DNA of 64,000 bases, taken from Psychrobacillus glaciei (lineage in GTDB: Bacteria > Bacillota > Bacilli > Bacillales_A > Planococcaceae). The notes below the pieces were generated by a model. That model made no database searches. It was not told the DNA's origin and saw only the letters and a list, made by a program, of their open reading frames with translations. Location of the stretch: assembly GCF_008973485.1 (NCBI RefSeq), contig NZ_CP031223.1, forward strand, positions 2,480,001-2,544,000. The letters run 5' to 3'. The translations under genes and the position numbers were made by a program. Shown piece by piece: positions 2,511-45,890 of this stretch (the stretch's first letter is position 1; each line of letters opens with the position of its first letter).

Positions 2511-2993
2511 ATGAAGAGAGCATCCATCCGTTCATTGGGCATTGGGTTATTTCTTGCTGGTGCCGTATTTCAAATTCAACATCTATCCATATCAGGTGAA
2601 ATTAAATCCTCGCATGCGATAAATGAAGGAGCATATGATAAGTCCCAAGCAGAATTGAAAATTGTTAAGCAACAGCTTGCTCAGCTCCAACTAAACTTAG
2701 AGAACGTAAAAAAAGAAAACAGTACAGTAGTTAACGCAAAAAATGAGGAAAAAGAAGATAAAGAATCCCCTTCTAAAAAAAGCACTTCTAATTCTATTTT
2801 AATAGTGCAACCTGGCATGAATTCAAGAGAGATTAGTTCCGAATTAGAAAGCACTGGTATCATTCAAAATAAACAAGATTTTGAAGACTATTTAGATGCC
2901 CAGAATTTAACTGGGCGCATTCAAATCGGGGAATATGAATTGGATTCTTCTTTGACGATGAAACAAATTGCTGAAAAAATTACGAAAAAATAA
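2511..2993 (+). CDS. Membrane-anchored protein with MltG/YceG-like C-terminal domain
   Basis: A 160-residue protein with a short N-terminal membrane helix or signal anchor (about residues 8-24), a helical coiled-coil region (about 42-72), a charged low-complexity linker, and a C-terminal domain (about 96-160). That domain has the pattern LIVQPGMNSREISSELESTG, then FEDYLDAQNLTGRIQIGEYEL and SLTMKQIAEKIT, which resembles the LysM-like substrate-recognition subdomain of endolytic transglycosylase MltG. The catalytic part of MltG is missing, so a role in binding peptidoglycan is more likely than cleavage (inference). It starts directly after the preceding stop (TAAATG), and its own stop is the first base of a dispersed repeat. 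Confidence 0.75.
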   Translation: MKRASIRSLGIGLFLAGAVFQIQHLSISGEIKSSHAINEGAYDKSQAELKIVKQQLAQLQLNLENVKKENSTVVNAKNEEKEDKESPSKKSTSNSILIVQPGMNSREISSELESTGIIQNKQDFEDYLDAQNLTGRIQIGEYELDSSLTMKQIAEKITKK

Positions 2994-3165
2994 GAAAAAC
3001 GGAAACATCCTTTAAGTGCATCTTGTCTTTACTGTTTCCAGAGTGCTTTGGGCGAAACATCACCTACACTAATAACGTTAGAGTAATGGATCGTGAAGTG
3101 ACTGCGTCACTGCACGATTTATTTTTTCTGTAATCTTGTGGCGGATGTTTGTCCGTCTCCCTTTT
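2991..3165 (+). repeat. Dispersed modular repeat, copy A (truncated)
   Basis: First of seven related + strand copies. It begins TAAGAAAAAC, with the TAA also being the stop codon of the gene before. It carries the shared blocks CCTTTAAGTGCATCTTGTC, GTGCTTTGG, ACACTA, a hairpin ATCGTG..AGTGAC / GTCACTG.CACGAT followed by TTATTTTTT, and TAATCTTGTGGCGGATGTTT. It ends after the GTCCGTC block and lacks the second half. The hairpin and T run probably terminate the + strand operon. The rest of the gap up to 3281 shows only a weak hairpin near 3245-3268. Confidence 0.8.
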
Positions 3166-3281
3166 GTATTAGTTGAAATCAAGGTACTTTTGATTTGGAT
3201 AATTAAAGACAAGATCCTCGCCTACTTATATTCACATGTTCAAGTGATAACTTACAAGTAAATCACAATAATAAAGATACA

Positions 3282-5264
3282 TTAAAGAGACTTCAATAGA
3301 ACATCTACAGCTTCTTTAATATCTTTTTCACGAATAATTTCCATAACATCACGTTCAGTAAGGTCAGATTGCAAACCGGTAGCTTTCTTTCCATTAAAAT
3401 CTACATTCACCTCAGTACCTTTACTAATATCTAGTGTATATGTTTGACCATTGACCTCTTGATTATAGGAAAAAGAACCGAGATATTCTAGATTTTCATG
3501 ATAATTAAGCTGATATGTCATCCCATTAACTTGGATTGGCTTTTCTATTTGCCCATCATCATATTTTTCTCCTATGTCCTTCTTTATAGAAATGTGTAAA
3601 GTATTATTAGGATATTGTTTCTGTAAGTAATATTTTAATGAAATGTATTGAATGTCTTCCTTCGATATTTCTTTCTCATATATTTTATCTGCTTCTAAAC
3701 TAAATACATCTATTTCTTCATCATTGGAATTAAACACCATGATTTCTTTTAAGTTATATTCTTTAAAAGTATTCTTATATTTAATATCCGGATATAAAAA
3801 AGAAAATTCTTTTAAATTATTGAATGTGTAAAACTGATGATCTATCAATCTATAGTGATCTAGATTTTCACTATTTTTCGAGATAACGACTTTATATTCA
3901 TTGTATTTCAGCTTTTCTTTTTCTTTTTCATACATTTTTTCCATCTCTTTAAATTCCTCTAATTCAGCCTCAGAAAACTCCTCATTTGAATAGACAACTT
4001 CCTTGTATTCATATGTTCTGTTGTCATGGTTAATCACAAATTGGGCTACCACTTCACTAACCTGCTCTAAAAACGGAAAGTTAATCTTATCTATTGTATC
4101 TGATGGACTATGTATGAAATCCATTATTTTCTGACTTCCTAGACTTACTGCATTTATATTTTTAGATAAAAACGAAGCGTAATCGCTTACAAGCCCCTGC
4201 GAAGTATCAACTTCCACTGGTAAGTCATTATTCTTAAAGTGAATAGTTACATCATCTAGCAATTCCTGCATCGCTTCCTCTCCACCGGCAAGGAGTTCAA
4301 TGGGGGCGTCATATATAGCATCTAGGTTAACATTAATAAGATGTTTATACTCCTTTTTCAATATATCCGTATAGTGCTTACTACCTTGTAAACCTGATTC
4401 TTCGCCATTGAAAGCTACAATCACAATATCCTTTTGAAATTTACCATTCTTTTCAGTGTATTTACTTAGCTTTTTCGCTACATCCAGTAAAATAGCCACT
4501 CCTGATGCATTATCAATAGCACCTCGATAAACCGTGTCGTTCACTTTTCCTACATGGTCAAAATGAGCGGAGAGCACAACTGCATTCGTTGAATCATTCC
4601 CAGGAATTTTGCCTACAACATTATAAGCTTGAATTTCCTCCAACTCGGCACGACTTGTTATTTCCAGTTGCCCTTTAGATTCTTTCTTTAACATTTCATA
4701 TGTGTCTTTATTTATTTGAATAAATGGTTTTTTCATATTGTTTACATTTAACATTCTTTTAAAAGAGTCTTCCACAAGCAATATCCCTGAAACTTTGTCG
4801 TGTACCTGTTCAAAATTTTCTCGATTTTCCAACACAATAAAGGAATTCTCTAGTTCTGGATCATGGATATCAAACGTAAATGGAAAACTCTCCTTATAAT
4901 TTGTGAAACCAGACCTTTCTAGAAAATCTATACCACGTTGAAGTTCAACTATTCTACCATCCTCGGTCTTTATGTTAATCTCAAATTTTATTTTTTCTGG
5001 ATCATAGTATTGATGAGGATAAGCCTGCAAATAATTATTTTCTTTAAACGGCACTAAACCAATTTCTTTAAACTTTTCTTCTATAAATTGAACAGCCCTA
5101 TTGTTACCTGTTGTGCCTGTCAATCTACCTTCCATTTCATCCGATGTAAAAACTTCAACAAAATCTTTTATATCATTATTTTCTTGATTCAATATTGCAA
5201 TATTGTCAGAACAACTACTTAAAAAGATTAATATAGCGATTAATGGTACGAATTTTTTTAACAT
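3282..5264 (-). CDS. M28 family metallopeptidase, lipoprotein
   Basis: Secreted, membrane-anchored zinc aminopeptidase. The signal peptide ends in the lipobox LSSC with C18 as the lipidated residue. The M28 catalytic domain (about 205-415) shows all expected ligands: H234 and D236 in SAHFDHVG, D251 in AIDNASG, E288/E289 in FNGEESGL, D315 in NLDAIYD and H385 in FIHSPSDTIDK. Before it, about 130-200 looks like a PA-type insert. The last about 240 residues have no domain I recognise; they are Lys/Glu-rich with predicted beta content and may bind substrate or cell wall. ATG 5264 has AGGAAGGTGG upstream. The gene is monocistronic between repeat copy A and the pho terminator. Substrate unknown. Confidence 0.88.
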   Translation of the reverse strand: MLKKFVPLIAILIFLSSCSDNIAILNQENNDIKDFVEVFTSDEMEGRLTGTTGNNRAVQFIEEKFKEIGLVPFKENNYLQAYPHQYYDPEKIKFEINIKTEDGRIVELQRGIDFLERSGFTNYKESFPFTFDIHDPELENSFIVLENRENFEQVHDKVSGILLVEDSFKRMLNVNNMKKPFIQINKDTYEMLKKESKGQLEITSRAELEEIQAYNVVGKIPGNDSTNAVVLSAHFDHVGKVNDTVYRGAIDNASGVAILLDVAKKLSKYTEKNGKFQKDIVIVAFNGEESGLQGSKHYTDILKKEYKHLINVNLDAIYDAPIELLAGGEEAMQELLDDVTIHFKNNDLPVEVDTSQGLVSDYASFLSKNINAVSLGSQKIMDFIHSPSDTIDKINFPFLEQVSEVVAQFVINHDNRTYEYKEVVYSNEEFSEAELEEFKEMEKMYEKEKEKLKYNEYKVVISKNSENLDHYRLIDHQFYTFNNLKEFSFLYPDIKYKNTFKEYNLKEIMVFNSNDEEIDVFSLEADKIYEKEISKEDIQYISLKYYLQKQYPNNTLHISIKKDIGEKYDDGQIEKPIQVNGMTYQLNYHENLEYLGSFSYNQEVNGQTYTLDISKGTEVNVDFNGKKATGLQSDLTERDVMEIIREKDIKEAVDVLLKSL

Positions 5265-5420
5265 ACGGATCCACCTTCCTCTAAAATCTCATAAATTACC
5301 ACATATTAGTAATTATATAATTAGGAAAATATAAATACAATGGATATATTGACATTTTTCCCAGTTTTTTTAGATAATTATAATATTACAGAAACATTTT
5401 TTTGCGGTTAGTCTAAAGAG

Positions 5421-5460
5421 AAAAAAGGCAGTCTCAAAAGTTTTCACTTTCGGACAGCCT
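5421..5460 (-). terminator. Terminator of the pst-phoU operon
   Basis: Minus-strand hairpin AGGCTGTC..GACTGCCT, one mismatch in the stem, followed by TTTTTTCTC, starting seven bases after the phoU stop. It is a typical Firmicutes operon terminator. Confidence 0.8.
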
Positions 5461-5466
5461 CTATTC

Positions 5467-6126: not shown

Positions 6127-6145
6127 CTTTTTCCAACTCCTTTCG

Positions 6146-9898: not shown

Positions 9899-9952
9899 AC
9901 TATAAAGGGTAGATGTTGAGTCGATGTGAATGTATTGTAAAGCTTTTGTAAA
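9899..9952 (-). promoter_or_regulatory. PhoP-controlled promoter of pstS
   Basis: On the minus strand four hexamers occur at exact 11-base spacing: TTTACA, TTTACA, TTCACA, TCAACA (+ coordinates 9947-9952, 9936-9941, 9925-9930, 9914-9919). This matches the PhoP box layout known in B. subtilis (TTAACA-like repeats 4-6 bases apart). A -10 TATAGT follows at 9899-9904. No proper -35 is present, as expected for activator-dependent initiation. Confidence 0.85.
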
Positions 9953-9970
9953 TTGAGTAGTGTGTGAAAA

Positions 9971-10350
9971 TAAGAAAAGCGCAAGTGTCCTTTAAGTACA
10001 TTTTGTCTTCACTATTTCTAGAGTGTCTTGGACAAGACATCAGCTACACTAATACCGTTGGAATTTTTGTGGATCGTGAAGTGACTGCGTCATTGTATGA
10101 TCCATTTTTCCAATAATCTTGTGGTGGATGTTTGTCCGTCGCCATCTTGAAATAGGTAGTGACCTGTTGCAGTAGGTTTGGTTAATGAGAAAATAAATCC
10201 TTTCCTATTCTTATAAAAGCGGACGAAGATGCAATTTCGTCCACTCAGCACTTCTTTATTCATGGATGCTATCTATTTTTTCAGGTTCCACCAACTCTAA
10301 TCATCTACAAAATGAATTATGTATACTTTATTAATTAGAGATAAAAGGAA
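9971..10350 (+). repeat. Dispersed modular repeat, copy B
   Basis: Near-complete copy: TAAGAAAAGCGCAAG head, terminator-like hairpin GGATCGTGAAGTGAC / GTCATTGTATGATCC with ATTTTTCC, GTGGTGGATGTTTGTCCGTC block, AATGAGA, second hairpin GCGGACGAA / TTCGTCCAC with GATGCAA loop, then a CATCTAC to GTATACT tail. It is followed directly, head to tail, by copy C. It lies upstream of the PhoP site in a gene-free region. Confidence 0.85.
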
Positions 10351-10825
10351 TAAGAAAAGCGCAAGCGCCCTTTAAGTGCACCTTGTCTTCTCTATTTCTA
10401 GAGTGCTTTGGACGAAACATTTGCTAGACTATTACCGCGGGAATTTTTGTGGATGGAGAAGTGACTGCGTCACTTCTCCATCCACTTTTTTTCGATAATC
10501 TTGTGGCGGATGTTTGTCCGTCACCTTCTTGAAATTTGTAGAGACAAGGTGCGTAAGGTTAGGTTAATGAGAGATTAGATACTTTCCTATTCTTTTAAAA
10601 GCGGACGAAGATGCAATTTCGTCCGCTCAGCGCTTCTTTATCAATGAATACTACCTATTTTTTCAGGCCCCACCAATTCTAATCATCTACCCGCTGATTC
10701 ATGTATACTGTGTACGATAAAAGTAAAAACGTATAGGAAATCCTGCTTAAGGAAGACACCATTAAAATCACTTCAAGTCGTTGTGCATACTGGATTTCTA
10801 GTATTTCAATTTCATATACTTTCTT
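10351..10825 (+). repeat. Dispersed modular repeat, copy C (longest)
   Basis: Best preserved copy. The first hairpin is a perfect 17-bp stem, GTGGATGGAGAAGTGAC / GTCACTTCTCCATCCAC, plus seven T; the second is GCGGACGAA / TTCGTCCGC. After GTATACTGTG it continues with a less conserved tail (CATACTGGATTTCTAG, then TTCATATACTTTCTTA) that is shared only with copy E at about 28640-28685. The full element may therefore be about 470 bp. Confidence 0.85.
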
Positions 10826-10845
10826 ATTAGGAACTACTCACTTAA

Positions 10846-10990
10846 TGGATTGTAGTGAAAGGTAGCGACTCCAGACGGAGGCCAACAGGATGTTGGTCAT
10901 GAAGGCGTTGCCACACGATGTGGCACTCTTAGCCTTCGTTCCTCGTCGCTCACCCCGCGGAACGCGTCCACCTGAAACGAAAATCCGCGG
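10846..10990 (+). repeat. GC-rich intergenic repeat, copy 1
   Basis: GC-rich island in AT-rich DNA. It starts TGGATTGTAGTGAAAGG, then GCGACTCCAGACGGAGG, and ends CCGCGGAACGCGTCCACCTG plus AAAATCCGCGG. It shares these ends with the copies at 46243-48023 and 48320-48460. Similar GACTCC...GCGGAAAGCGTCCGCC repeats are widespread in Bacillaceae genomes (recalled knowledge). The centre differs between copies and contains local hairpins such as CCAACAGGATGTTGG. Confidence 0.75.
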
Positions 10991-11568
10991 TATTATATAA
11001 TTCTTTAAAGTACTATGAACGCTGGTTTCGCAGTACGATAATCCATATACTTTCTTATCTTTTCAAAAAAAGATAACTGCCTAGTAAGTTGACAAATACA
11101 CTTATCAGCACTTACCGTATATATCTCCGTTTAAACACTCATTATAATGACCCAGTTCAGTATTCCTACAAAGCATCAGCGCACGTGTTTATTAACGAAA
11201 AATATCCATTCTTGGATTGCATTGGATTGAACTATTAATTCACCATTAACGATATGTCTGCGTGCGGTAATCGTGTTTTAGTCATTCATCCCTCTCTCTT
11301 TTGCAGGCACACATAAACCAAGTGCCAAATATTTTGGGAAAGAATTTCATAGAATAAGCAGCCAAAGATGCAATTTTGACAGCCCAGCGCTTCACTAAAG
11401 TGTTTCCGCCTTTTCGATTTGAAAATAAGTATCACTTTTTTACACAGCATCTCTATATGAATCGTATTACTTAGCAAAAATAAGTAAGTAATACATGGTA
11501 AAAAAGTGTGAAATTCCCGAAATTGCATCTTCGGTAACTTGCAACTTCCGTAGAACGGTAGCTATTCT
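10991..11568. other. Gene-free region with repeat remnant and nested inverted repeats
   Basis: I see no credible gene here. At 11361-11395 there is a decayed piece of the modular repeat (AAAGATGCAATTTTGACAG, then CAGCGCTTC). At 11433-11508 a nested palindrome has outer arms CACTTTTTTAC / GTAAAAAAGTG and inner arms GTATTACTTA / TAAGTAATAC. The only open frame (80 codons, minus) covers this repeat debris and has no family features. Confidence 0.5.
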
Positions 11569-11615
11569 AAAAAAAACGGAACATCCTATTAAACTTTTAG
11601 GATGTTCCGTTTTTA
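11569..11615 (-). terminator. Terminator of pbpA
   Basis: Long perfect stem on the minus strand: AACGGAACATCCTA / TAGGATGTTCCGTT followed by eight T, starting just after the pbpA stop. The A run on the other side means it could act in both directions. Confidence 0.9.
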
Positions 11616-11619
11616 GTTA

Positions 11620-13857
11620 TTATTTAGTCTGCGTCTCTTCTTCATCTATTTTATCGTTTGTAAAAGCAGGTTTAATAGTAGGAGTCGCAGTTGAATCATT
11701 TTCTTTTAATGCTTCATTTTTTTGTTGAATTTTAAAATACTCGTCTACTAACTCCCTTGCGATAGGTGTAGCAAAACTAGACTTGTAGTTAGATTCAAGC
11801 GAAGCACTAGGAATAACTAGCGCATATGCTATTTCCGGGTTATCAAATGGCGCAAAACCAATATGCGTCAAATTAACTGTACTAAAAGTTCTGCCTTTCT
11901 CGACATCCCTATAGAAGGATTGTGCAGTTCCTGTTTTCCCAGCTCCATTAAATTGAGAGCTTCCAAACGCTGTATGTGCGGAACCTTTACTTCCATAATA
12001 CACTAATTGCATGGCAGAACGAATATGTTCAATTTCAGCCGTTGTATTGTCAATTGTATTTAATACATTTGGTGTAAACTCTTTCACTACTCCTCCAAGT
12101 TGTTCTCCGTCAGTGGATGGCTCTCTTATTTCCTTCACCACATGGGGTTGAATTCGACTTCCACCATTTGCAAGAGTGGCAGCATATTGGGCAAGCTGTA
12201 AAGGTGTGTACGTATCATATTGACCAATCGCAAGGTCAAGCAATTTCCCCATCTCCAGTCCACCTTCTACACCTGTCACTTCACCTGGTAAATCAATTCC
12301 TGTTCGAACACCTAAGCCTAATTGTGCATAGCCATTTCTCATTTTCTGAAAAGCATCTATTCCAAAATTAATCCCTTGGTTTGGCTGATAAACTCTACCA
12401 GCAATGCTATATGCAGTTTTAAACATAAATACATTGGAAGAACGTTCAATTGCTTCTGAATCACTGAGTAGAATTCTTCCTGATCTATTAAATACCGAGC
12501 TCTTTGGTGCGGAACCTTTAATACGAATAGGTTCATCAACAAATTTTTCTCCAATTTCAATTGCTTTTTCTCGGTAGCCAGTTAGCAAAGTTCCAGGTTT
12601 TACCGTTGATCCTACTTCATAAGCAGTAGTAAATGAACCAAAAGCATAATCCCTAACTTTTGGCTTTCCTGTTACAGGATCATTTACGACTTGCTTCCCG
12701 ACTAAAGAAAGAACCTCACCAGTATATGGATTCATCATAATAAAAAATGCTCTATCTAAATACTTCGTTCCAGGAATTTGTTTCAATCTCAAAAGTTCTT
12801 TTTCGAGGATTTCTTCTTGAGCAATCTGTACTTCACTATCCATTGTTAAAACTAAATCTTTCCCCGGCTTACCTTCATCAACAGTTTGAGTATCTATTAC
12901 TCTTCCTTTTCCATCTGTAATATTCTTCACTATACTTTTTTTGCCCTGAAGTACTTCTTCGTATTGTTGTTCAATATAACTTTTTCCGACTCGGTCATTC
13001 CTAGAATAGCCTCTTGATAAGAAATAATCGAGCCTTTCTTTTGGTATCCCTTCTTTTGGTAGCGAGGCCGTACCTAATATCGCTAGCGGAGAAGTATATA
13101 CTCTTCTCCAATCGGTAGTTGTATTAACTCCCTTTAAATCACTTAATCTCTCAGATACTCGAGCAAATTCTTCTACCGTAACTTCTTCCGAAATTTCTCC
13201 TGGTTTTATTTCTTTATTAGCGACTTCCCCCCCTTTAATAATTTGTGGGGACAGCGCGTAGCCAGCAACCATTTCACGATAAATTGCAATGACTTGCATC
13301 TCTTCTTGCGTAAATGAATGTAATTCCTCTTCTGGTATTCTACTTCTTGTTAAACGATTAGCTTCAATATTCTTTTCTTTTGTTGATAAGTTTTCATCTG
13401 TTTCAATTTTTTTACGTTCCTCAGCAGATACTAACTCTAATGCTTTTTCTTTATTTTTCCAAAGCCAAAAGTCTTGTAAATCACTTTTAGTAATTGCTTT
13501 TGGATTCTTTTGAATGAGCTTACTTAACTTTTTAGCTATCTCGTACATTTCATCTGATTTCGTCGTTTGCATTTTTGTATAAGTAATGGCACGCTGTGGC
13601 TCATTATCTACAAGAATTCGTCCTTCACTATCAAAAATACGCCCTCTTGGTACACTTGTATTAACTGCAACTTCTTCCGTACGTTCAAGTTTTAACTTAT
13701 AGTCTTCCCCTTTTACAATTTGTAAATAACCTAATCGCAAGATTAATAATGTAAACAAAAGGAAAATAGAAAAGAAAAGTATATTCATGCGAAAAGTTAT
13801 ATTAGCTCTTTGTTTAGCTTTTACACTTTGTGCACGTTTATTGGGAGTTTTTCGCAT
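11620..13857 (-). CDS. pbpA: Class B penicillin-binding protein 2 (transpeptidase)
   Basis: Bitopic peptidoglycan transpeptidase acting with a RodA-type polymerase in cell-wall elongation. The 745-residue product has a basic cytoplasmic tail, one membrane helix (about 24-45), a PBP dimer domain with the SVPRGRIFDSEGRIL motif, an insertion typical of Gram-positive PBP2, and the transpeptidase domain with catalytic S417 in STVK, SSN at 473-475 and KTG at 641-643. A GTG three codons upstream is in frame but overlaps the AGGTGATC ribosome site, so ATG 13857 is chosen. Its place between pst genes and sodA matches yqgF (pbpA) of B. subtilis. Confidence 0.93.
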   Translation of the reverse strand: MRKTPNKRAQSVKAKQRANITFRMNILFFSIFLLFTLLILRLGYLQIVKGEDYKLKLERTEEVAVNTSVPRGRIFDSEGRILVDNEPQRAITYTKMQTTKSDEMYEIAKKLSKLIQKNPKAITKSDLQDFWLWKNKEKALELVSAEERKKIETDENLSTKEKNIEANRLTRSRIPEEELHSFTQEEMQVIAIYREMVAGYALSPQIIKGGEVANKEIKPGEISEEVTVEEFARVSERLSDLKGVNTTTDWRRVYTSPLAILGTASLPKEGIPKERLDYFLSRGYSRNDRVGKSYIEQQYEEVLQGKKSIVKNITDGKGRVIDTQTVDEGKPGKDLVLTMDSEVQIAQEEILEKELLRLKQIPGTKYLDRAFFIMMNPYTGEVLSLVGKQVVNDPVTGKPKVRDYAFGSFTTAYEVGSTVKPGTLLTGYREKAIEIGEKFVDEPIRIKGSAPKSSVFNRSGRILLSDSEAIERSSNVFMFKTAYSIAGRVYQPNQGINFGIDAFQKMRNGYAQLGLGVRTGIDLPGEVTGVEGGLEMGKLLDLAIGQYDTYTPLQLAQYAATLANGGSRIQPHVVKEIREPSTDGEQLGGVVKEFTPNVLNTIDNTTAEIEHIRSAMQLVYYGSKGSAHTAFGSSQFNGAGKTGTAQSFYRDVEKGRTFSTVNLTHIGFAPFDNPEIAYALVIPSASLESNYKSSFATPIARELVDEYFKIQQKNEALKENDSTATPTIKPAFTNDKIDEEETQTK

Positions 13858-19765: not shown

Positions 19766-19770
19766 TTTAA

Positions 19771-20080
19771 TAAAAACAGAGCAAGCGCCCTTTAATTGCA
19801 TTTTATCTTCACTAATTCCCGAGTGCTTTGGACTAAACCTCAGCTAGACTTTTACCTTTAAAATTAATGAGCTTGAAGTGACCGTGTTGTTTCAAGTTCC
19901 TTTTATTGGTATTTCACGAAAGACATTTGTGCGTCACCATCTTGAAATGTGCATAGAAAAGGAACATAAGGTGTAGTTAAGGAGAAGCTAAATTCCTCTC
20001 CTACTTTTTTAAAAGCGGATAAAGATGCAATTCAGTTCTCTCTGTGCTTGCTTAAAATATTTGCTGTCAATTTTTCCTTA
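19771..20080 (+). repeat. Dispersed modular repeat, copy D (decayed)
   Basis: Begins GAGCAAGCGCCCTTTAATTGCA, then CGAGTGCTTTGGACTAAACC and GCTAGAC. The first hairpin has partly decayed (GCTTGAAGTGAC / TTGTTTCAAGT), as has the second (GCGGATAAAGATGCAATTC). It is shortened at the 3' end. It follows the terminator of the + strand operon by a few bases. The rest of the gap to 20165 holds only a weak terminator. Confidence 0.75.
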
Positions 20081-26513: not shown

Positions 26514-27170
26514 ATGCGCTATGAGTCTTTTTATCCGTTTTCACAATCTAGGGCGAATGACTTCTTTAATTTTAATAGTTCGCCTCCTGTGAATACTCAC
26601 CAGCCTTCACAGAGTATGTTCGGAATACCAAATAATTCAAATGGTTCACAACCAACCAACTTCTTAGGACGTCTTTTGGGAGGTTTTCAACAAGGAGGTT
26701 CAGGAGGGCAGGCTGGTGGATTCGGTGGTCCAGAAGGGCATGGAGGAGCTGGTGGGTTCGGTGGTCATGCAGGGAATGCTGGGGCTGGCGGATTCGGTGG
26801 TCATGTAGGAAATGCAGCGGCTGGAATTTTCGGTGGACCTGGAACTCAGTCTGGTCTTCAACAAGCGGCTGGTGCTGCTACAGGTAAAGCATCATCCTAT
26901 TTACAAACTGCTGATAAGTTTTTAAATACTGCCCAACAAATCACACCTATGGTAAGGCAATATGCACCAATGCTTCAAAACATGCCAGCCCTTTGGAAGC
27001 TCTATAAGGGCTTTCAATCCGTACCAAGTGCAACGGCTGCTGCCGCTGTGGCTACCACAGCAACCGCTGCTACAACTGCCGCTGCAAGTGTCCCAGCTGT
27101 TGCCCGAACAACTTCATCCGTCGTTTCAAACGGGGCTTCCTTACCACGAATATTTCAGCCACCATTTTAA
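26514..27170 (+). CDS. yqfQ: YqfQ/VrrA-like glycine-rich protein
   Basis: The 218-residue product has a polar Asn/Ser/Gln-rich N-terminus, a glycine-rich middle (about 56-112), a helical core with FLNTAQQITPMVRQYAPMLQNMPALWKLYKGF (about 130-165) and an Ala/Thr-rich C-terminus. The core motif and the position between cshB and ispH match YqfQ of B. subtilis and VrrA of B. anthracis, where it is described as possibly spore-associated. ATG 26514 has AAAGGAGATG upstream; the earlier in-frame start overlaps cshB. Function is not established. The middle holds tandem 36-base repeats, so length may vary between strains. Confidence 0.8.
   Translation: MRYESFYPFSQSRANDFFNFNSSPPVNTHQPSQSMFGIPNNSNGSQPTNFLGRLLGGFQQGGSGGQAGGFGGPEGHGGAGGFGGHAGNAGAGGFGGHVGNAAAGIFGGPGTQSGLQQAAGAATGKASSYLQTADKFLNTAQQITPMVRQYAPMLQNMPALWKLYKGFQSVPSATAAAAVATTATAATTAAASVPAVARTTSSVVSNGASLPRIFQPPF
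26745..26840 (+). repeat. In-frame 36-bp tandem repeats in yqfQ
   Basis: Two full units encode GAGGFGGHAGNA and GAGGFGGHVGNA (26745-26780, 26781-26816), with a third partial, degenerate unit AAGIFGG after. An earlier partial unit (AGGFGGPEG) precedes them. This is the same gene that carries the vrrA VNTR in B. anthracis. Confidence 0.85.
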
Positions 27171-27236: not shown

Positions 27237-28217
27237 ATGATTGTACAAAAAATTTCGCCAAGAGGATATTGTTATGGGGTTGTGGATGCAATGGTCATTG
27301 CACGTAACGCAGCTTTAGATACATCTCTTCCCCGGCCAATATATATTTTAGGAATGATTGTCCACAACAAACATGTAACGGATGCATTTGAAAAAGACGG
27401 TATTATTACACTTGATGGTGAAAATCGTTTAGATATTCTTTCTAAAGTCGATCAAGGAACAGTAATTTTCACTGCTCATGGTGTGTCTCCTGAGGTAAAG
27501 GAACTTGCACGTAAAAGAGGGTTAGTTTCAATAGATGCAACATGCCCGGACGTGACAGTGACACATGACTTAATTAAAGAAAAAACTGCTGAAGGGTATG
27601 ACATTATTTACATTGGGAAAAAAGGCCATCCTGAGCCAGAAGGTGCGATTGGCGTTGCACCAGATAAAGTGCATCTAGTGCAAACAATAGCGGATATCGA
27701 TAACTTAACGATTGAAACGGATAAACTTCTTGTAACAAATCAAACTACGATGTCACAGTGGGATGTCGTGGATATGATGAAAAAATTGGAAGAAAAATTT
27801 CCGCATATAGAAGTTCACAAAGAAATTTGCCTTGCAACGCAAGTAAGACAAGAAGCGGTTGCAGAACAAGCAGGCGAAGCCGATCTATTGATTGTTGTAG
27901 GAGATCCGATGAGTAATAACTCGAATAGATTGACGCAAGTTTCGGAGGAAATTGCTGGTACTCCTTCTTATCGTATCGGAGACATTTCAGAGCTTAAGCT
28001 TGAGTGGTTAGAAAACATTAATCATATAGCAGTTACAGCAGGAGCATCTACACCTACTCCTATTGTGAAAGAAGTTATCCAATTTTTAGAAAAATACGAT
28101 ACAAATGACCCTACAACTCATGATACAACGAAAAAAGTCATACCAGAAAAAATATTACCAAAAATTAAAATACCAAAACCAGTAGATAGAATAGAGCCGT
28201 ACCCAATTAATATCTAA
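27237..28217 (+). CDS. ispH: 4-hydroxy-3-methylbut-2-enyl diphosphate reductase
   Basis: Last enzyme of the MEP pathway, reducing HMBPP to IPP and DMAPP with an iron-sulfur cluster. The three cluster cysteines are seen in SPRGYCYG (C12), DATCPDVT and EICLATQ, with TNQTT carrying the proton-relay region. The 326-residue product has a C-terminal extension with Pro/Lys repeats ([17 protein letters not shown]) longer than usual. Upstream Met codons lack a ribosome site; ATG 27237 has GAAGGGAG. It has its own strong promoter and is followed after one base by repeat copy E, which probably supplies its terminator. Confidence 0.95.
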
Positions 28218-28218
28218 G

Positions 28219-28685
28219 TAAGAAAAACGTAAACGTCCTTTAAGTGCATCTTGTCTTCTCTATTTCTAAAGTGCTTTGGACGAAACATCGGCTACACTAT
28301 TACCATAGGAATTTCTGTGGATGGAGAAGTGACTGCGTCACTTCTCCATCCACTTTTTTCTGTAATCTTGTGGCGGTTGTTTGTCCGTCGCCTTCTTGAA
28401 ATATGTAAAGACATAATGCATTTGTTTTGGTTAATGAGAGAATAAATCCTTTCCTATTCTTTTAAAAGCGGACGAAGATGCAATTTCATCCGCTCAGCTC
28501 TTCTTTAATAATGGATGCTATCTATTTTTCACTAGTACCACCTACTCTAATGATACACCCACTGATTCGTGTATACTGTGGACCTTAAAACCAAAAATAA
28601 TCAAGATCAAACCCTTGAAATTATATTATGAAGCATTACTATTACTGGATTCCTAGCATCCAAGATTTATATTCTTTCGTATCTT
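28219..28685 (+). repeat. Dispersed modular repeat, copy E
   Basis: Full-length copy starting one base after the ispH stop. The first hairpin is the perfect 17-bp stem GTGGATGGAGAAGTGAC / GTCACTTCTCCATCCAC followed by six T. The second hairpin is GCGGACGAA / TTCATCCGC with a GATGCAA loop. The tail (ACTGGATTCCTAGCATCC, then ATATTCTTTCGTATC) matches the tail of copy C. I see no gene in it. Confidence 0.85.
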
Positions 28686-28686
28686 T

Positions 28687-28721
28687 TAAAAAAGGCTGCT
28701 TCCGAGGAAGCAGCTTCTTTT
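28687..28721 (-). terminator. Terminator of the trmK-yqfO unit
   Basis: Minus-strand stem GCTGCTTCC / GGAAGCAGC with TC loop, followed by CTTTTTT, directly after the yqfO stop. Confidence 0.9.
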
Positions 28722-29839
28722 TAAATAAATTGAAATGGTTCTGTAGAAAGCTTAGAAGGTATAAATGTACAAGCAAGTTTCTTTTCAATACAAGCTGCGT
28801 TCATATAATCTGCAACGCCATCTTTCATAATCTGTTCCATATGATGACCAGGATCAATCACTGCCAGATCAATTGCTTCGGCGTCTTGTGCCACATGAAA
28901 GTACATGTCCCCTGTAATAAACACATCTGCCCCTGCTCTTTTTGCTGTTTGAATGTATTTATTTCCATCCCCACCAAGTACTGCAACCTTTTGAACAAGT
29001 TTATCCAACTCTCCTACTACACGCACAAATGGGACGTCCAACTGCTTTTTCACTGTTTGTGCATATTCGTATAATCTTACTGGAGTTGGAAGCGTCCCTA
29101 TCCTTCCAAGCCCTTTTTCGTTGACTTCTGTTTCAAGTAGAAGTAAATCATATGCAGGCTCTTCATACGGATGTGTCATAAGCAAAGCTTTTAGAATACG
29201 ATTTTTTATAGAAGCAGGGAATACTACTTCCACTTTATCTTCTGTTACAATGGTAAGCTCATTCGCTTTACCAATGTATGGATCAGCAATTTCAGAAGGT
29301 TTAAACCGTCCTTCACCTTGTGAAGTGAAGCTGCAATTAGCATAATCACCGATTTGACCTGCTCCCACATTTCCCAAAGCCATTCTTACTTGTTCCGTCG
29401 ATTCTTTTGGAGTGAACACTGCTAATTTCATTAACCTTTCAGCAGTTGTTTGCTCTAATATTTTCACATTTTCAAGTTCCAATGCGTTTGCTAATAAATC
29501 ATTTACTCCACCAGTCGCAATATCGAGATTCGTATGCGCTGCATATACCGCAATATCATGCTTGATTAATTGCTCGATTAAGCTTCCTTGTGGTAAATCC
29601 GTTCGCATATGTTTCATTCCACGAAATATGGGAGGATGATGCGCAATGATTAACTCACATTGTTGCTCTATCGCTTCTTTTACTACTTTTGGATTCACAT
29701 CGAGTGTAACAAGCACTTTAGAAACTGACTTGTTCAGACTACCTATTTGAAGTCCGATGGAATCCCCTTCCACAGCAAGCGATTTAGGTGCCCATTGTTC
29801 AAATAGGGAGATGATCTGTTGACCATTTGTTTGCTTCAT
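28721..29839 (-). CDS. yqfO: Nif3-like dinuclear metal centre protein (DUF34, YqfO)
   Basis: Member of the Nif3/DUF34 family, often annotated GTP cyclohydrolase I type 2 homologue; the true activity is uncertain. The 372-residue product has the two Nif3 halves with metal-binding motifs AHHPPIF (H67, H68), AHTNLD and, at the C-terminus, ITGDMYFHVAQDA and DPGHHMEQ. The inserted middle domain (about 130-240) includes MTHPYEEPAYDL, the PII-like YqfO insertion of Bacillus. It starts three bases after the trmK stop, so the two are co-transcribed, as yqfN-yqfO in B. subtilis. Confidence 0.92.
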   Translation of the reverse strand: MKQTNGQQIISLFEQWAPKSLAVEGDSIGLQIGSLNKSVSKVLVTLDVNPKVVKEAIEQQCELIIAHHPPIFRGMKHMRTDLPQGSLIEQLIKHDIAVYAAHTNLDIATGGVNDLLANALELENVKILEQTTAERLMKLAVFTPKESTEQVRMALGNVGAGQIGDYANCSFTSQGEGRFKPSEIADPYIGKANELTIVTEDKVEVVFPASIKNRILKALLMTHPYEEPAYDLLLLETEVNEKGLGRIGTLPTPVRLYEYAQTVKKQLDVPFVRVVGELDKLVQKVAVLGGDGNKYIQTAKRAGADVFITGDMYFHVAQDAEAIDLAVIDPGHHMEQIMKDGVADYMNAACIEKKLACTFIPSKLSTEPFQFI

Positions 29840-37995: not shown

Positions 37996-38057
37996 CGCCT
38001 CAAAGTGTTATACTTAATACTCAATTATTGTAGCACATAATAATACCACTATCAAAA

Positions 38058-38169
38058 TAAGAAAAGTGCAAGCGTCCTTTACAAGCAAGATGTCATTACT
38101 ATTTATAGATTGCTTTGGACGAAACATCGGCTACACTATTACGGAGAAGTTTCGTAGCGTGAAGTGACC
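38058..38169 (+). repeat. Dispersed modular repeat, copy F (head only)
   Basis: Keeps the head TAAGAAAAGTGCAAGCG, the TTGCTTTGGACGAAACATCG block, GGCTACACTATTACGG and the 5' arm of the first hairpin (GCGTGAAGTGACC), then stops. The remainder up to the glyS promoter (38170-38268) is unrelated and contains a local GACGAGC/GCTTGC-rich stretch. It lies between divergent ccpN and glyS. Confidence 0.75.
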
Positions 38170-38319: not shown

Positions 38320-38497
38320 AAGAGGATTATAAGTACTGTAAAATGAGCGAGTGGTGATAGTGAAAGTCCACATTACAGGAAACGGCAACTCGGAGCTTAT
38401 GCTTTTAAAGAGGATTGTGTTGAACAATCAATCGGGGTGGAACCGCGGGTATAATACTCGTCCCCGGGCTAATTTGGCCCGGAGACGAGTTTTTTTA
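38320..38497 (+). promoter_or_regulatory. Glycine T-box riboswitch of glyS
   Basis: Leader RNA that senses uncharged tRNA-Gly. Stem I upper helix is CTGTAA (38336-38341) with TTACAG; the internal specifier loop is formed by AGTA (38332-38335) and GAAACGGCA, giving GGC (Gly codon) at 38384-38386. A stem III hairpin GATTGT/ACAATC follows (38414-38430). The T-box GGGTGGAACCGCGG is at 38435-38448, with TGGA matching a tRNA ending UCCA. The terminator ACTCGTC..CGGGC / GCCCG..GACGAGT plus seven T is at 38456-38497. The compact layout without stem II is like the B. subtilis glyQS leader. Confidence 0.93.
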
Positions 38498-38538
38498 TTG
38501 CCCACTTTAAAAGGCATTCAAAAAATGGAGGTATTTCA

Positions 38539-39921
38539 ATGACAAATTCAATGGAAAAAGTAGTAAGTTTAGCAAAGCATAGAGGGTTTGTTTTCCCTGG
38601 TTCAGAAATTTATGGTGGACTCGCAAATACTTGGGATTACGGTCCACTTGGCGTCGAATTAAAAAACAATGTTAAAAAAGCATGGTGGAAAAAGTTTGTG
38701 CAAGAGTCACCATATAATGTTGGCTTAGATGCAGCTATTTTAATGAACCCAAAAACTTGGGTAGCTTCTGGTCATATAGGAAACTTTAATGATCCTATGA
38801 TTGACTGTAAAAAATGTAAATCTCGTCATCGTGTGGATAAAATTATTGAAGATGCTCTTGATAAAAAAGGAATTGAAATGGTTATTGATGGTCTTTCATT
38901 TGAAAAAATGGAAGACATCATGCTAGAACACGATGTAGTATGTCCAACATGTGGCGCTTTTGATTACACAGAAATTCGCCAGTTCAACTTAATGTTTAAA
39001 ACATTTCAAGGCGTGACTGAGGCATCTACCAATGAAATCTTTTTGCGCCCTGAAACGGCACAAGGAATATTTGTAAACTACAAGAACGTACAACGTTCTA
39101 TGCGTAAAAAAATGCCTTTTGGTATTGCGCAAGTAGGTAAAAGTTTCCGTAACGAGATTACACCAGGTAACTTCACATTCCGTACAAGAGAATTCGAACA
39201 AATGGAATTAGAATTCTTCTGTAAACCAGGGGAAGATATGGAATGGTTTGAATTCTGGCGTAATTATTGTAAAGAATGGTTATTGAATTTAGGTGTCGCT
39301 GAAAATAGCATTCGTTTACGTGATCACTCAGAAGACGAGCTTTCTCATTATTCTAATGCAACAACTGATATTGAATATAAATTCCCATTTGGTTGGGGAG
39401 AGCTATGGGGTATTGCAGATAGAACAGACTTTGACTTAAAGCAGCATATGGAGCATTCAGGAGAAGATTTCAACTATATTGATCCAATTACAAATGAAAG
39501 ATATGTACCATATTGTATCGAGCCATCTTTAGGCGCTGACCGTGTAACCCTTGCATTCCTTTGTGAAGCTTTTGATGAAGAGCAATTAGAAGGTGACGAT
39601 ACTCGTACAGTATTGCGCTTCCACCCTGCTCTTGCACCGATAAAGGCAGCAATTTTACCATTATCGAAAAAGTTATCGGAAGGTGCTACTTCGTTGTTCT
39701 CAGAGCTAAGCAAACACTTTATGGTAGACTATGATGAATCTCAATCAATTGGTAAACGCTATCGTCGTCAAGATGAAATTGGTACTCCATTCTGTATCAC
39801 ATACGATTTCGATTCAGAAACGGACAATCAAGTAACGGTTCGTCACCGTGATTCTATGGAACAAACAAGAATGCCAATTGCTGAAGTTAAAGCATATATC
39901 GAAAGTCAATTACAATTTTAG
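38539..39921 (+). CDS. glyS: Glycyl-tRNA synthetase, single-chain dimeric type
   Basis: Charges tRNA-Gly with glycine. The 460-residue product is the alpha2 class IIA enzyme related to archaeal/eukaryotic GlyRS, with [20 protein letters not shown], zinc-binding CKKC and CPTC in the insertion, motif 2 ([19 protein letters not shown]), the [10 protein letters not shown] substrate region, motif 3 ([13 protein letters not shown]) and an anticodon-binding domain (about 360-455). B. subtilis uses the unrelated alpha/beta GlyQS at the same locus, while the B. cereus group has the single-chain form; so the enzyme type differs while locus and T-box control are kept. ATG 38539 has ATGGAGGT upstream. 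Confidence 0.96.
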
Positions 39922-41103: not shown

Positions 41104-42781
<1,678 letters not shown>

Positions 42782-42795
<14 letters not shown>

Positions 42796-43267
42796 GGCCT
42801 TCACGTTTCAAACCAAAAGCTTGTAGTATTGTTTCTTGTAGACCAAACATTACTTTTTCTTCTTCTTTCGTCCCATGATCGTAACCAAGGAGATGTAAAA
42901 AACCATGAACAGCTAAAAAGCAAAGCTCTCTTTCAAATGTATGAGCATATGATTCTGCTTGTTCGTTTGCACGGTCTACAGAAATTACAATGTCTCCCAA
43001 AAGCGTTGGGATATCCGCATCTTTTATCACTATCTCACCATCACCCATTTCTTCCATAGCAAATGAAATCACATCGGTTGGAACATCTTTTTTTCGATAA
43101 GTACGATTGATTTCTTGAATAGCATCGTTTGTAACAAACGTTACACTAACTTCACTTCCATCTTTTACTTTTTGTTGCTCTGCGGCAAATTGCAATACTT
43201 TTCCTACAAGTTCAATCGTTTGTTCAGCTAATGTATTTGTCTCATCCATTACATCAAGTTCTAGCAT
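42782..43267 (-). CDS. ybeY: Endoribonuclease YbeY
   Basis: Metal-dependent RNase for 16S rRNA 3' maturation and ribosome quality control. The 161-residue product has the zinc motif [11 protein letters not shown] (about 121-131) and the conserved [16 protein letters not shown] near 54-69. ATG 43267 has AAAGGTGG upstream. It sits between pgpH and dgkA as in B. subtilis (yqfG). Confidence 0.96.
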
Positions 43268-43285
43268 TCTATTACCACCTTTTTT

Positions 43286-45397
43286 TTATTTTGGATACTC
43301 TATTCTTGAATGAAAAATACCATTCATTGTAGTATAAAAGCTCTCCTTTATTTGCTTTATTTCACGCAAAGATAAGTCACATTCATCAAACTGTCCATCT
43401 TGAAGCTTATCTTTAATGATTGATTCGATTAGTGCATGAACTTTTTCTGCGCTTGGTTCTTTCATTGAACGAACTGCAGCCTCTACACTATCCGCAACTG
43501 AAATTATGGCATTTTCCTTTGTTTGAGGCTTAGGCCCATTATACCTAAATTCTTGTTCTTTTACTTTATCATTTTGTTCATTCGCTTTGTAATAAAAGAA
43601 CTTCAACAAACTTGTCCCATGATGTTGTTCTGCAACATCCACAATTTCTTTCGGCATTTTATGCTTACGTAGAATATTAGCTCCATCTACTGCATGAGCA
43701 ATAATAATATCACGACTTGCTTCAGGAGGTAAATTATCATGTGGATTATACCCATTCATTTGATTTTCAATAAAAAAGCCGGGCCTTTTCGTTTTACCAA
43801 TGTCATGATAATAGCAACTAACTCTCGCTAACAAGCCATTAGCTCCTATTGCCTCGCAAGCGGCTTCCGCTAAGTTTGCAACCATTACACTATGATGATA
43901 TGTTCCCGGTGTTTCTGTTAATATTTTTTTTAGTAACGGATGGTTAGGATTTGATAATTCAATTAGTTTCATAGTAGATAGGATCCCAAATGCCGATTCA
44001 AAAAAAGGCAATATTCCGATTGTTAATGCACCTGATAGAATACCTGATAATATTGCTGCTCCTATATAAAATAGTAAATCGGTTAAACCATATGTCGTTT
44101 TTGTCATTAGTAAATAAAAAACGATAAATATTATGTTAACGGATGCAACAATTAAACTGGAACGAAGGATTTGAGAATTATGCCGCATTCTTTGTAATGC
44201 AAAAATCCCTGAAATCCCTCCAAATAAAATATATAACGAGATTTCCATTTGAAATACATTCGTATAACCTTCTTGAAATATAAATCCAGCATAAGCTGCA
44301 ATAATAATGGTCGTGATAAAGGCCATTCGTTCATTAACCAAAAGGTATACGAGCATCGACACAATGGCTGTTGGAAAAATAAAAGCTATCACAACATCGA
44401 AATTGTAGGATATAAACTGTAAAACTTTCATCATTAGAACAGATACAAATAAACTAAACAGAACTACTAGTAAGGATTTCGAACTTTCGACCGTTTTATC
44501 CTTTCCATTTATCGTTTGAATATACAATACCCACATTGTTAACAATACGAATAACGCCACTCCAACGATAGGTTTATAAGAAAATTTATTTGTAAGCATT
44601 CCTAAAAGCTTCAGTTGTCTATAAACTTCCCGATCAATAATTCCACCTTTTTGAACGAGAATTTGTCCTTGTAAAATTCTTGTTGGATCAACACTTGCTT
44701 TTGCTTGCTCTAATCGTAATTCTGTTAGTTCTTTATTTTCAATGTCTGTTTCGACAATGCTAAAACGAGCGATGGATACAAGCGCATTTATATACGAATG
44801 CGAATAATTAAAGGATTTCCTAACTTTCTCCTCTAATTCTTTTTTCTGTTCCGGAACTTTTTCTAATCGAATTCTTTCACTCAAAGTCTCTTTTACAAAG
44901 GAAACTAGTGTCTCGCTAGATTGAGTTAGCGTAGTAGGACTTTGGCTAAGGAGCGCCGTTAAAGCATCTTCACTTAAATATACATTACTTGCATTATCAG
45001 CAATTTTCTCCATTTCTTTTTTTAACTTATTGAGTTGACTAGTTCTACTTTCCATTTCCTCTGCTGGGATCGCTTCTTTTTTGATTTCTATAACACTATC
45101 AAATATAGATCGAATAATCGCAACTTGATTATCCGCGGTTTCTTCTTGGAATTGATAATAAGGTTGAATTTCTGCTGCTACTTTTTCACGTTCTTGTTCT
45201 GTTTTCACACTATCTTCCATTGTTTTGACGGATCTAATGGTTTCAGGAGATAACTGAAATTCTTTAATATCATATGTATTTTCCTTTACATTCCCTATTA
45301 ACAATAAAAACATAATAATTGCAGTAATAGAAATGATAATTAAAGGGAGATGCTTATAATTGCTCCACTGCTTCATTTTCAATAAGATAGAATTCAC
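43286..45397 (-). CDS. pgpH: 7TM-HD phosphodiesterase PgpH (c-di-AMP)
   Basis: Membrane HD-domain phosphodiesterase; in Listeria the homologue PgpH breaks down c-di-AMP. The 703-residue product has one N-terminal helix, a large extracellular region (about 40-265), seven membrane helices (about 275-465) and a cytoplasmic HD domain with H..YHHSVMVANLAEAA, CYYHDIGK (HD pair), AHAVDGANIL and EQHHGTSLL. The start is GTG 45397 with GGGAGATGAG upstream; an in-frame ATG seven codons later is possible. In B. subtilis yqfF follows phoH directly; here 3.3 kb of repeats and an IS separate them. Confidence 0.93.
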   Translation of the reverse strand: MNSILLKMKQWSNYKHLPLIIISITAIIMFLLLIGNVKENTYDIKEFQLSPETIRSVKTMEDSVKTEQEREKVAAEIQPYYQFQEETADNQVAIIRSIFDSVIEIKKEAIPAEEMESRTSQLNKLKKEMEKIADNASNVYLSEDALTALLSQSPTTLTQSSETLVSFVKETLSERIRLEKVPEQKKELEEKVRKSFNYSHSYINALVSIARFSIVETDIENKELTELRLEQAKASVDPTRILQGQILVQKGGIIDREVYRQLKLLGMLTNKFSYKPIVGVALFVLLTMWVLYIQTINGKDKTVESSKSLLVVLFSLFVSVLMMKVLQFISYNFDVVIAFIFPTAIVSMLVYLLVNERMAFITTIIIAAYAGFIFQEGYTNVFQMEISLYILFGGISGIFALQRMRHNSQILRSSLIVASVNIIFIVFYLLMTKTTYGLTDLLFYIGAAILSGILSGALTIGILPFFESAFGILSTMKLIELSNPNHPLLKKILTETPGTYHHSVMVANLAEAACEAIGANGLLARVSCYYHDIGKTKRPGFFIENQMNGYNPHDNLPPEASRDIIIAHAVDGANILRKHKMPKEIVDVAEQHHGTSLLKFFYYKANEQNDKVKEQEFRYNGPKPQTKENAIISVADSVEAAVRSMKEPSAEKVHALIESIIKDKLQDGQFDECDLSLREIKQIKESFYTTMNGIFHSRIEYPK

Positions 45398-45479
45398 TTT
45401 ACTCTCATCTCCCTTATTACTTATAAATTTATTATACCTTACTTTTAGATTGATATAAAAATAATTCCAAATTTACATA

Positions 45480-45890
45480 TAAGAAAAGCGCAAGCATCCT
45501 TTAGGTGCACCTGTTCATAACCAATTCCCGAGTGCTTTGGACTAAACCTCAGCTACACTATTACCATAGTAATTTGGCTCGTGAAGTGACTGTGTCACTT
45601 CACGAGCTTTTTTTCGGTAATCTTGTGGCAGATGTTTTTCCATAGCCCCTTGAAATCTGAAGAGACATGGTGCATTAGGTATGGTTCATGAGAGAATAGA
45701 TCCTTCTCTACTCTTTTAAAAGTGGACGAAGATACAATTTCGTCCACTCGGCGCTACTATATTAATAAATGCTATCTATTTTTTTTCAGTTTCTATCAAT
45801 TCTAATCAACTACCCACTTACTCATGAATACTGTGTTACGTAAAAGTAAAAAACAAATAAGATCAAGCCCTTTAAGATTTGAAAAACAAC
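45480..45890 (+). repeat. Dispersed modular repeat, copy G
   Basis: Near-complete copy. The first hairpin is GCTCGTGAAGTGAC / GTCACTTCACGAGC plus seven T, different in sequence from copies C and E but equally well paired. The second hairpin is GTGGACGAA / TTCGTCCAC, also paired although two bases changed on both arms relative to GCGGACGAA / TTCGTCCGC. The tail CTCATGAATACTGTG and AAAAGTAAAAAAC follows. It lies upstream of pgpH, in opposite orientation to it. Confidence 0.85.

What the first reader, a model, noticed from the sequence alone, without database searches (positions are those of the whole stretch)
2991..45890. Seven-copy modular intergenic repeat with covarying hairpins
Copies at 2991, 9971, 10351, 19771, 28219, 38058 and 45480 share an ordered set of blocks: a TAAGAAAAGCGCAAG head, GTGCTTTGGACGAAAC, ACACTATTACC, hairpin 1 around AAGTGAC/GTCACTT, TAATCTTGTGGCGGATGTTT, GTTAATGAGAGA, hairpin 2 around GACGAAGATGCAATTTCGTC, and a GTATACTGTG tail. 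Both hairpins keep pairing while their bases change. Hairpin 1 outer arms are GGATGGAG/CTCCATCC (C, E), GCTCGTG/CACGAGC (G), ATCGTG/CACGAT (A). Hairpin 2 is GCGGACGAA/TTCGTCCGC (C) and GTGGACGAA/TTCGTCCAC (G). Such compensatory change points to selection on structure, so this may be an undescribed structured RNA or mobile hairpin element, up to about 470 bp long. No coding frame is conserved.
Basis: partly seen in the sequence, partly recalled or inferred. Interest (0 to 1): 0.82.

Follow-up and report, generated by a model that had tools for sequence, protein, structure and literature searches.

The report
Rolling-circle mini-transposons behind gene terminators
These repeats look like non-coding passengers of a rolling-circle jumping gene in a Psychrobacillus bacterium, sitting just behind transcription stop signals and nearly always pointing the same way relative to DNA replication, so they are better read as mobile DNA than as a new RNA.

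Summary
The repeats are real and belong to a larger family: 147 scored copies in this Psychrobacillus chromosome, found in 19 of 19 genomes of the genus and 38 of 261 of the order. The 470-bp unit is part of an element of up to about 700 bp, often containing Rfam's Bacillaceae-1 and ending in ATATACTTTCTTATCTT.

Both termini resemble those of a 1.56-kb IS91-family (HUH/Y2 rolling-circle) element with a full ORF in four places of the same chromosome. Best reading: a non-autonomous IS91-type element.

Two unusual properties: the end upstream of the transposase position abuts the T-run of an intrinsic terminator, or another copy's 3' hairpin, which imitates one and so allows head-to-tail arrays. 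Orientation follows replication in 144 of the 149 best-scoring copies counted in five genomes and in 32 of 34 convergent gene gaps, where gene direction cannot decide it.

Covariation is strong, but G·U and A·C departures are about equal, which does not support an RNA from either strand. Mobilisation in trans and lagging-strand targeting are inferred, not shown.

The parts
10351..11061 (-).
   Evidence: Sequence; a copy at 53.8 kb of the chromosome is 100% identical over the first 380 bp and its right-end 112 bp also matches at 100%; alignment of long copies
10351..10373 (-).
   Evidence: Terminator-like site 10372-10355 on the - strand (the scan as a whole found 2 such sites against 1.3 +/- 0.9 in shuffles); same position in the IS91-like element
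10399..10529 (+).
   Evidence: R1 match at 2490399-2490529; covariation; the tip plus T-run is terminator-like on +
10601..10626 (.). Hairpin 2 with the conserved loop GATGCAAT
   Evidence: Sequence; pair counts
10882..10948 (-). Bacillaceae-1 (RF01690) inside the unit
   Evidence: 74.2 bits against a gathering score of 35
11045..11061 (-). Right end = 5' end in sense (AAGATAAGAAAGTATAT read on the - strand)
   Evidence: shared with the IS91-like element
28217..28685 (-). Copy E, a shorter unit of about 470 bp without Bacillaceae-1, with head and right end
28686..28720 (-). Intrinsic terminator of the Nif3-like gene (28721-29839, -) whose T-run the right end of E abuts
   Evidence: Filled/empty site comparison with 11 relatives; gene names
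2989..3229 (-). Copy A, truncated
9969..10347 (-). Copy B, full core; copy C follows directly
19770..20080 (-). Copy D, degraded
38057..38169 (-). Copy F, head fragment only
45479..45852 (-). Copy G, full core; no right end recognised
11265..11601 (.). Degraded pair of facing pieces (+ then -), like the symmetric version seen in genus g29
   Evidence: Two weak profile hits, 11265-11399 + and 11447-11601 -; compared by eye

Best explanation
The repeat is the body of a non-autonomous rolling-circle transposon of IS91 type. [Bacillaceae-1 in many copies] ... hairpin 2 ... long hairpin ... small hairpin-TTTTTCTTA-3'. A 1.56-kb IS91-family element with an HUH/Y2 transposase in the same chromosome has the same kind of ends. 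That transposase, or a close relative, most likely moves the non-coding units in trans as single-stranded DNA. Insertion takes place directly 3' of a hairpin with a T-run, normally an intrinsic transcription terminator. The unit's own 3' end is such a hairpin plus T-run, so each insertion offers a new target and arrays grow head to tail. The terminators used are nearly always those whose hairpin-T strand is the lagging-strand template, which gives almost uniform polarity relative to the origin. Shown here: similar ends, full-length transposase ORFs, terminator-adjacent junctions, one filled/empty site, polarity. Inferred: mobilisation in trans, a single-stranded intermediate, use of the lagging-strand template.
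For: Partner: a 428-aa ORF matches Y2_Tnp (E 1.5e-41) and Zn_Tnp_IS91 and NCBIfam IS91 transposase (E 2.3e-90); two copies agree at 99.9% over 1563 bp; four full ORF copies in the DNA read, all codirectional with replication.

Ends: IS and units share TAAGAAAAA + hairpin at one end and ATATACTTTCTTATCTT at the other. In another species (G008) IS-like heads occur at 5 places, each at a repeat unit, and IS-like right ends at 11; 0 in five shuffles of each.

Target: of 30 right-end junctions 16 were called head-like by script, and 9 of the other 14 pass a strict terminator test, against 66 of 3000 random intergenic positions and 0 of the 14 a hundred bases further on. At copy E six of eleven relatives have only a compact terminator; in G000 the unit lies between its T-run and ispH, with no duplication seen.

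Polarity: 144 of the 149 best-scoring copies counted in five genomes; right ends 39 of 40 (by eye); convergent gaps 32 of 34, P 7e-8.

Recent movement: a copy 100% identical over 380 bp at a distant locus.
Against: No transposition was observed. The IS and unit ends in G000 are similar, not identical: the head hairpins differ in sequence and only about the last 20 bp of the right end are the same. Five of the 149 counted copies are opposite, as are one G015 row, 5 of 33 hits in the G008 stretches and the G004 copy at the ispH site. Five of 30 junctions pass neither test. The target tetranucleotide of IS91 (GAAC/CAAG, recalled) was not shown. In genus g29 the hairpin body sits in elements with other ends, so the body is not tied to IS91 ends.
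Confidence: 0.76

Rival explanations
1. A structured non-coding RNA: the covarying hairpins are kept because a transcript of the repeat folds and acts.
For: Strong covariation; conserved T·G columns such as 39 of 47 and 39 of 46; with a + strand fold of 71 copies the raw total is 871 G·T against 389 A·C; a known candidate RNA, Bacillaceae-1, lies inside many units.
Against: In mostly Watson-Crick pairs G·T and A·C are about equal (71 and 87; 329 and 318 on +, 284 and 268 on -). Each strand's own RNAalifold structure shows a mild G·T excess (67 to 38 and 40 to 22), so neither strand stands out. Bacillaceae-1 on its Rfam strand shows 6 G·T and 19 A·C in 27 copies. Replication polarity and the filled/empty site need a mobile-DNA account anyway.
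Confidence: 0.08
2. A REP-like or IS200/IS605-like element moved by the Y1 (RAYT-type) transposase of these genomes.
For: One or two Y1 genes in each of seven genomes; IS200/IS605 elements insert into the lagging-strand template (passages, PMC6006769 and PMC5371812).
Against: The Y1 genes carry a different palindrome (TGGTGCCAGGCACCA type) upstream in most of the loci read, and the repeat's ends were not seen beside them (by eye). The IS91-like element does carry the ends.
Confidence: 0.05
3. A retroelement moved by a group II intron reverse transcriptase, which would explain the same landing site.
For: Group II introns in these genomes begin right behind terminator hairpins with T-runs in five loci read by eye, and 17 of 18 RT matches of G000 are codirectional (by eye).
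Against: No group II intron match in copies B/C; the profile found the repeat's core in only one of the 20 fetched RT loci, L244, outside the RT gene; the ends match a DNA transposon.
Confidence: 0.04
4. A functional, polarised chromosome element, for instance a terminator protecting forks from head-on transcription.
For: The tip hairpin plus T-run reads as a terminator toward the origin, and many heads lie at stop codons of head-on genes.
Against: Head-at-stop follows from insertion behind compact bidirectional terminators (empty sites). Copy numbers range from 147 to 4 within the genus. Polarity holds in convergent gaps, where a terminator would serve either way.
Confidence: 0.06

Closest known systems
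IS91 family (HUH/Y2 rolling-circle insertion sequences)
   Same: The partner's transposase is a clear member; no long terminal inverted repeats; no duplication seen at the one site compared; hairpins near both ends
   Different: The unit has no transposase; the landing site is a terminator T-run; replication polarity. The IS91 target tetranucleotide (recalled) was not shown
Miniature IS801 fragments of Pseudomonas syringae (PMC3189936, passages)
   Same: Short non-autonomous pieces moved by an IS91-family element
   Different: Those are fragments of the IS itself; here the body between the ends is unrelated to the IS and forms long hairpins. Their link to terminators or replication was not stated in the passages seen
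Non-autonomous Helitrons of eukaryotes
   Same: HUH rolling-circle logic; [quoted passage not shown]
   Different: Bacterial host, no helicase domain found in the partner, other target
Group IIC introns
   Same: Land behind terminator stem-loops (PMC7923331, passages) and, in these genomes, are mostly codirectional
   Different: Ribozyme plus reverse transcriptase; none of this in the unit. The class label for the introns here is recalled, not from a call
IS200/IS605 and REP/RAYT elements
   Same: Single-strand transposition with lagging-strand preference (PMC6006769, PMC5371812, passages)
   Different: Y1 enzyme, other ends
Bacillaceae-1 RNA (RF01690)
   Same: A match above the gathering score lies inside many units
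   Different: 67 of about 700 bp; also found in both orientations

Membership tests
IS91-type element (non-autonomous) | HUH/Y2 transposase with zinc domain in the partner | tested here: met
   PF04986, PF14319, NF033538; applies to the partner, not to the repeat
IS91-type element (non-autonomous) | Both ends shared with the autonomous element | tested here: met
   Similar, not identical, ends in G000 and G008; 0 in shuffles
IS91-type element (non-autonomous) | No target duplication | tested here: met
   One filled/empty site; one further attempt failed
IS91-type element (non-autonomous) | Tetranucleotide target at one end (GAAC/CAAG, recalled) | tested here: inconclusive
IS91-type element (non-autonomous) | Transposition with transposase in trans, single-stranded intermediate | not testable with these tools
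   Needs an experiment
Classical MITE | Long terminal inverted repeats and target duplication | tested here: not met
   Only a short TAAGAAA-like inverted match between the ends (by eye); no duplication
Group II intron | Catalytic intron domains | tested here: not met
   No match in copies B/C up to E 1
IS200/IS605 or RAYT/REP element | Y1 transposase gene with these ends | tested here: not met
   Nine Y1 loci read by eye
Structured RNA | Covariation with G·U clearly above A·C on one strand | tested here: not met
   raw total is the contrary figure
Structured RNA | Expression as an RNA | not testable with these tools
   No RNA-seq at hand
Bacillus cereus bcr repeats | Sequence match to bcr1-18 | not tested
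   Only a search listing of papers was seen

The most novel reading that the evidence does not exclude
A bacterial rolling-circle (IS91-type) transposition system chooses its targets as single-stranded terminator hairpins with a T-run on the lagging-strand template, the same choice group IIC introns make with unrelated chemistry. Its passenger ends in a terminator mimic, so each insertion creates the next target and arrays propagate themselves. The long covarying hairpin, kept across genera whose elements have other ends, may be a single-strand origin that lets the displaced circle become double-stranded (this last part is pure hypothesis).
Probability: 0.48. Interest if true: 0.75.

Novelty: new variant of a known kind. 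Interest (0 to 1): 0.62.

Why it matters
It offers a natural multi-genome record of where an IS91-type system lands and points to terminators on the lagging-strand template as landing sites, a directly testable idea for a family involved in moving resistance genes. It shows two unrelated mobile systems in one chromosome, this one and group II introns, using the same kind of site. It also warns that strong covariation, and an Rfam sRNA family such as Bacillaceae-1, can ride on mobile DNA hairpins; counting G·U against A·C is a cheap check.

Tried and rejected
Structured RNA: set aside because G·T and A·C balance and because of polarity; the raw counts that point the other way are given in the report.

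Retroelement tied to the two-RT loci: the sixteen loci scanned include fifteen with group II intron matches in Rfam, L228 and L229 in nested arrangement; the core profile found the repeat in one of 20 RT loci, L244.

RAYT/REP: the Y1 loci carry other palindromes.

Plasmid relatives of the unit (copy C) or of one g29 version: none in PLSDB.

tRNA control for the G·T/A·C test: dropped, too few tRNAs in the fetched DNA.

Second filled/empty site, at copy G: not achieved; the script stopped without a tblastn hit in nine loci. Before that, the core profile had found a hit in one of the 80 loci L061-L140, in L063.

Rfam at E<=1 on copies B/C: only Bacillaceae-1 and two weak hits far below their thresholds.

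Terminator and promoter scan of 9900-11700: it marks the tip hairpin (+) and the head (-) as terminator-like, but 2 sites against 1.3 +/- 0.9 in shuffles and 4 promoter-like sites against 5.4 are not more than chance by number.

Literature: ten searches of the open PMC library listed no paper on non-autonomous IS91 elements placed behind terminators with replication polarity. I saw listings, and passages of seven papers, no whole text. A paper on transposon orientation cited there (Gomez 2014) is not held, so such a bias may already be described.
Full report
OBSERVATION. Repeat search and alignment confirm related sequence at all seven places. C, E and G carry all blocks and B nearly all; A is cut after about 240 bp, D is degraded, F is a head fragment. 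The window belongs to a Psychrobacillus chromosome: the nearest named record for the protein at 43286-45397 is P. vulpis at 80% identity. It lies at 2.480-2.544 Mb of a 4.33-Mb contig that begins at dnaA.

COPY NUMBER AND SPREAD. A search with copy E listed 57 rows: 41 long copies, all pointing to the origin, and 16 short matches, mostly self-palindromic; at most 40 candidates were scored. A covariance model of the inner hairpin (R1, built from 47 copies) gives 147 matches in G000, 124 in G004, 121 in G008, 98 in G015, 27 in G003 and 4 in G012, with at most 150 candidates scored per genome. In the order, 38 of 261 genomes match: 19 of 19 of this genus, 11 genomes of genus g29, 7 of g24 and 1 of g20.

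STRUCTURE. In the inner hairpin 31 of 53 pairs change on both sides (1 of 500 shuffles as high), 85.7% of cells pair, and the covariation score is 0.314 against 0.146 shuffled (0 of 500) and 0.06-0.11 when slid.

WHICH STRAND? In pairs that are mostly Watson-Crick I counted 71 G·T and 87 A·C on 47 copies, and on 71 copies 329 and 318 (+ strand fold) or 284 and 268 (- strand fold). Contrary figures: the raw total over the + fold is 871 to 389, which includes columns that are G·T in most copies, and each strand's own RNAalifold structure has a mild G·T excess (67 to 38 and 40 to 22; raw 186 to 38 on +). Bacillaceae-1 on its Rfam strand gives 6 to 19 in 27 copies. I read this as no consistent RNA signature on either strand, with the conserved T·G columns as the best remaining argument for an RNA. 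Hairpins that change as blocks could also arise by template switching at inverted repeats (general knowledge, not tested).

THE UNIT IS LONGER. Full units run from TAAGAAAAACG to ATATACTTTCTTATCTT, typically about 690-760 bp where both ends are recognised, often with Bacillaceae-1 in the opposite sense; copy E is a short form of about 470 bp. Another copy's head may follow at once. Copy C and a copy at 53.8 kb are identical over 380 bp.

POLARITY. dnaA positions fix the replichores; the terminus was taken as the opposite point. Among the 150 rows listed (of 521 matches in six genomes), reader-sense copies point to the origin in 69 of 72 (G000), 26 of 27 (G004), 24 of 25 (G008), 24 of 24 (G015) and 1 of 1 (G003), together 144 of 149; one row, on another contig of G004, was left out. 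One search lists one opposite copy of G015. In 864 kb of G000 and 400 kb of G008, hits are polar in 71 of 73 and 28 of 33; as clusters with a gene on both sides, 47 of 49 and 23 of 25. Clusters at stretch ends were dropped there, including an opposite one in G008 at 3.42 Mb. About half of the G000 stretches, and part of those of G008, were chosen for known copies, so densities are not unbiased. ORFs of at least 450 bp are codirectional in 476 of 620 and 215 of 292, so gene bias alone would give about 75%. In convergent gaps, which offer a gene end on either side, 22 of 22 and 10 of 12 are polar (P 7e-8 for 32 of 34). Gene calls are simple ORF calls. Right ends are polar in 39 of 40 (by eye). 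Bacillaceae-1 copies occur in both orientations (by eye), so polarity is not a property of every repeat here.

JUNCTIONS. By eye the right end meets an A-run, then a terminator hairpin of the codirectional gene or the head of another unit. By script 16 of 30 junctions are head-like (the loose pattern also takes L260, which by eye is a hairpin terminator), 9 of the other 14 pass a strict terminator test and 5 pass neither; random intergenic positions pass in 66 of 3000, and the same 14 sites a hundred bases on pass in none. The head itself reads as a terminator on the - strand. At copy E, six of eleven relatives (G001, G002, G006, G008, G009, G010) have only a compact terminator between ispH and the Nif3-like gene (names); G000 has the unit between the T-run and ispH without a visible duplication. 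G004 and G007 have a copy at the same gene pair in the other orientation, and G003, G005 and G011 have other inserts. Head-at-stop-codon is thus a by-product of compact bidirectional terminators.

PARTNER. Following an opposite-oriented copy led to a 428-aa ORF beside the same right end. It is an IS91-family transposase with YIGRY and HVH motifs (by eye). Two copies agree at 99.9% over 1563 bp; four full ORF copies lie in the DNA read, at 851 kb, 2.685 Mb, 632 kb and 4.316 Mb, at 98-100% protein identity and all codirectional. Behind the IS right end stands a unit's head in three and a terminator-like hairpin in one (by eye). At 4.316-4.319 Mb the order is terminator, unit, unit, IS. IS-like heads (up to 6 mismatches in 34) occur at 5 places in the G008 stretches, each at a repeat unit by position, and IS-like right ends (up to 9 in 37) at 11; none in five shuffles of each.

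MECHANISM. For IS91 the literature describes single-strand rolling-circle transposition, no duplication and two catalytic tyrosines four apart (PMC5714925, passages). Lagging-strand preference is documented for IS200/IS605, and orientation biases are mentioned for several IS families (PMC6006769, PMC5371812, passages); I found no statement for IS91. The step from terminator adjacency plus polarity to 'single-stranded terminator hairpin on the lagging-strand template' is inference. It is supported by analogy: group II introns in these genomes begin right behind terminators in five loci (by eye), and 17 of 18 RT matches of G000 are codirectional (by eye).

EXCEPTIONS. Three opposite copies of G000 have their head at the stop of a codirectional gene, and in two of them a head-on gene's 3' end faces the other side. 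They would fit terminator targeting on the rarer strand, which I did not prove. In genus g29 the hairpins often come as facing pairs about 450 bp apart, in elements with other ends in the loci read (by eye); polarity is not defined there, and the hairpin body has a history of its own.

VERDICT. A non-autonomous IS91-type element family. The kind is known; the body, the landing site, the self-similar arrays and the polarity make it a new variant, as far as ten searches of an open-access library can show.

Noticed in passing
L228-L232 (G000 2.32, 2.35, 3.05, 3.22 and 3.56 Mb): Five near-identical group II intron copies with two RT genes each; Rfam finds two intron types in L228 and L229, as if one intron were nested in another.
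   Followed up: partly
L236, L237, L238, L241, L243: Group II introns that begin (GTGYG) directly behind a terminator hairpin and T-run, the same landing site as the repeat.
   Followed up: partly
L147-L155: Y1 (RAYT-like) transposase genes, one or two per genome in seven genomes, most beside a TGGTGCCAGGCACCA-type palindrome and in similar gene neighbourhoods.
   Followed up: partly
L310, L322, L312 (genus g29) and window 11265-11601: Symmetric elements: two long hairpins facing each other about 450 bp apart, ends near CACGTCTGTTGATTAACCAA in some loci; the window holds a degraded relative.
   Followed up: partly
window 38400-38540: T-box-like sequence (GGTGGAACCGCGGG and a terminator) by eye upstream of the gene at 38539; Rfam did not list it at the gathering threshold.
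   Followed up: no
window 26711-26841: Tandem 36-base units rich in GGTGG inside an ORF, probably a glycine-rich repeat protein.
   Followed up: no
L280, L282, L288: Other, different inserts at the same ispH intergenic site in three relatives, as if this terminator were a hot spot.
   Followed up: no
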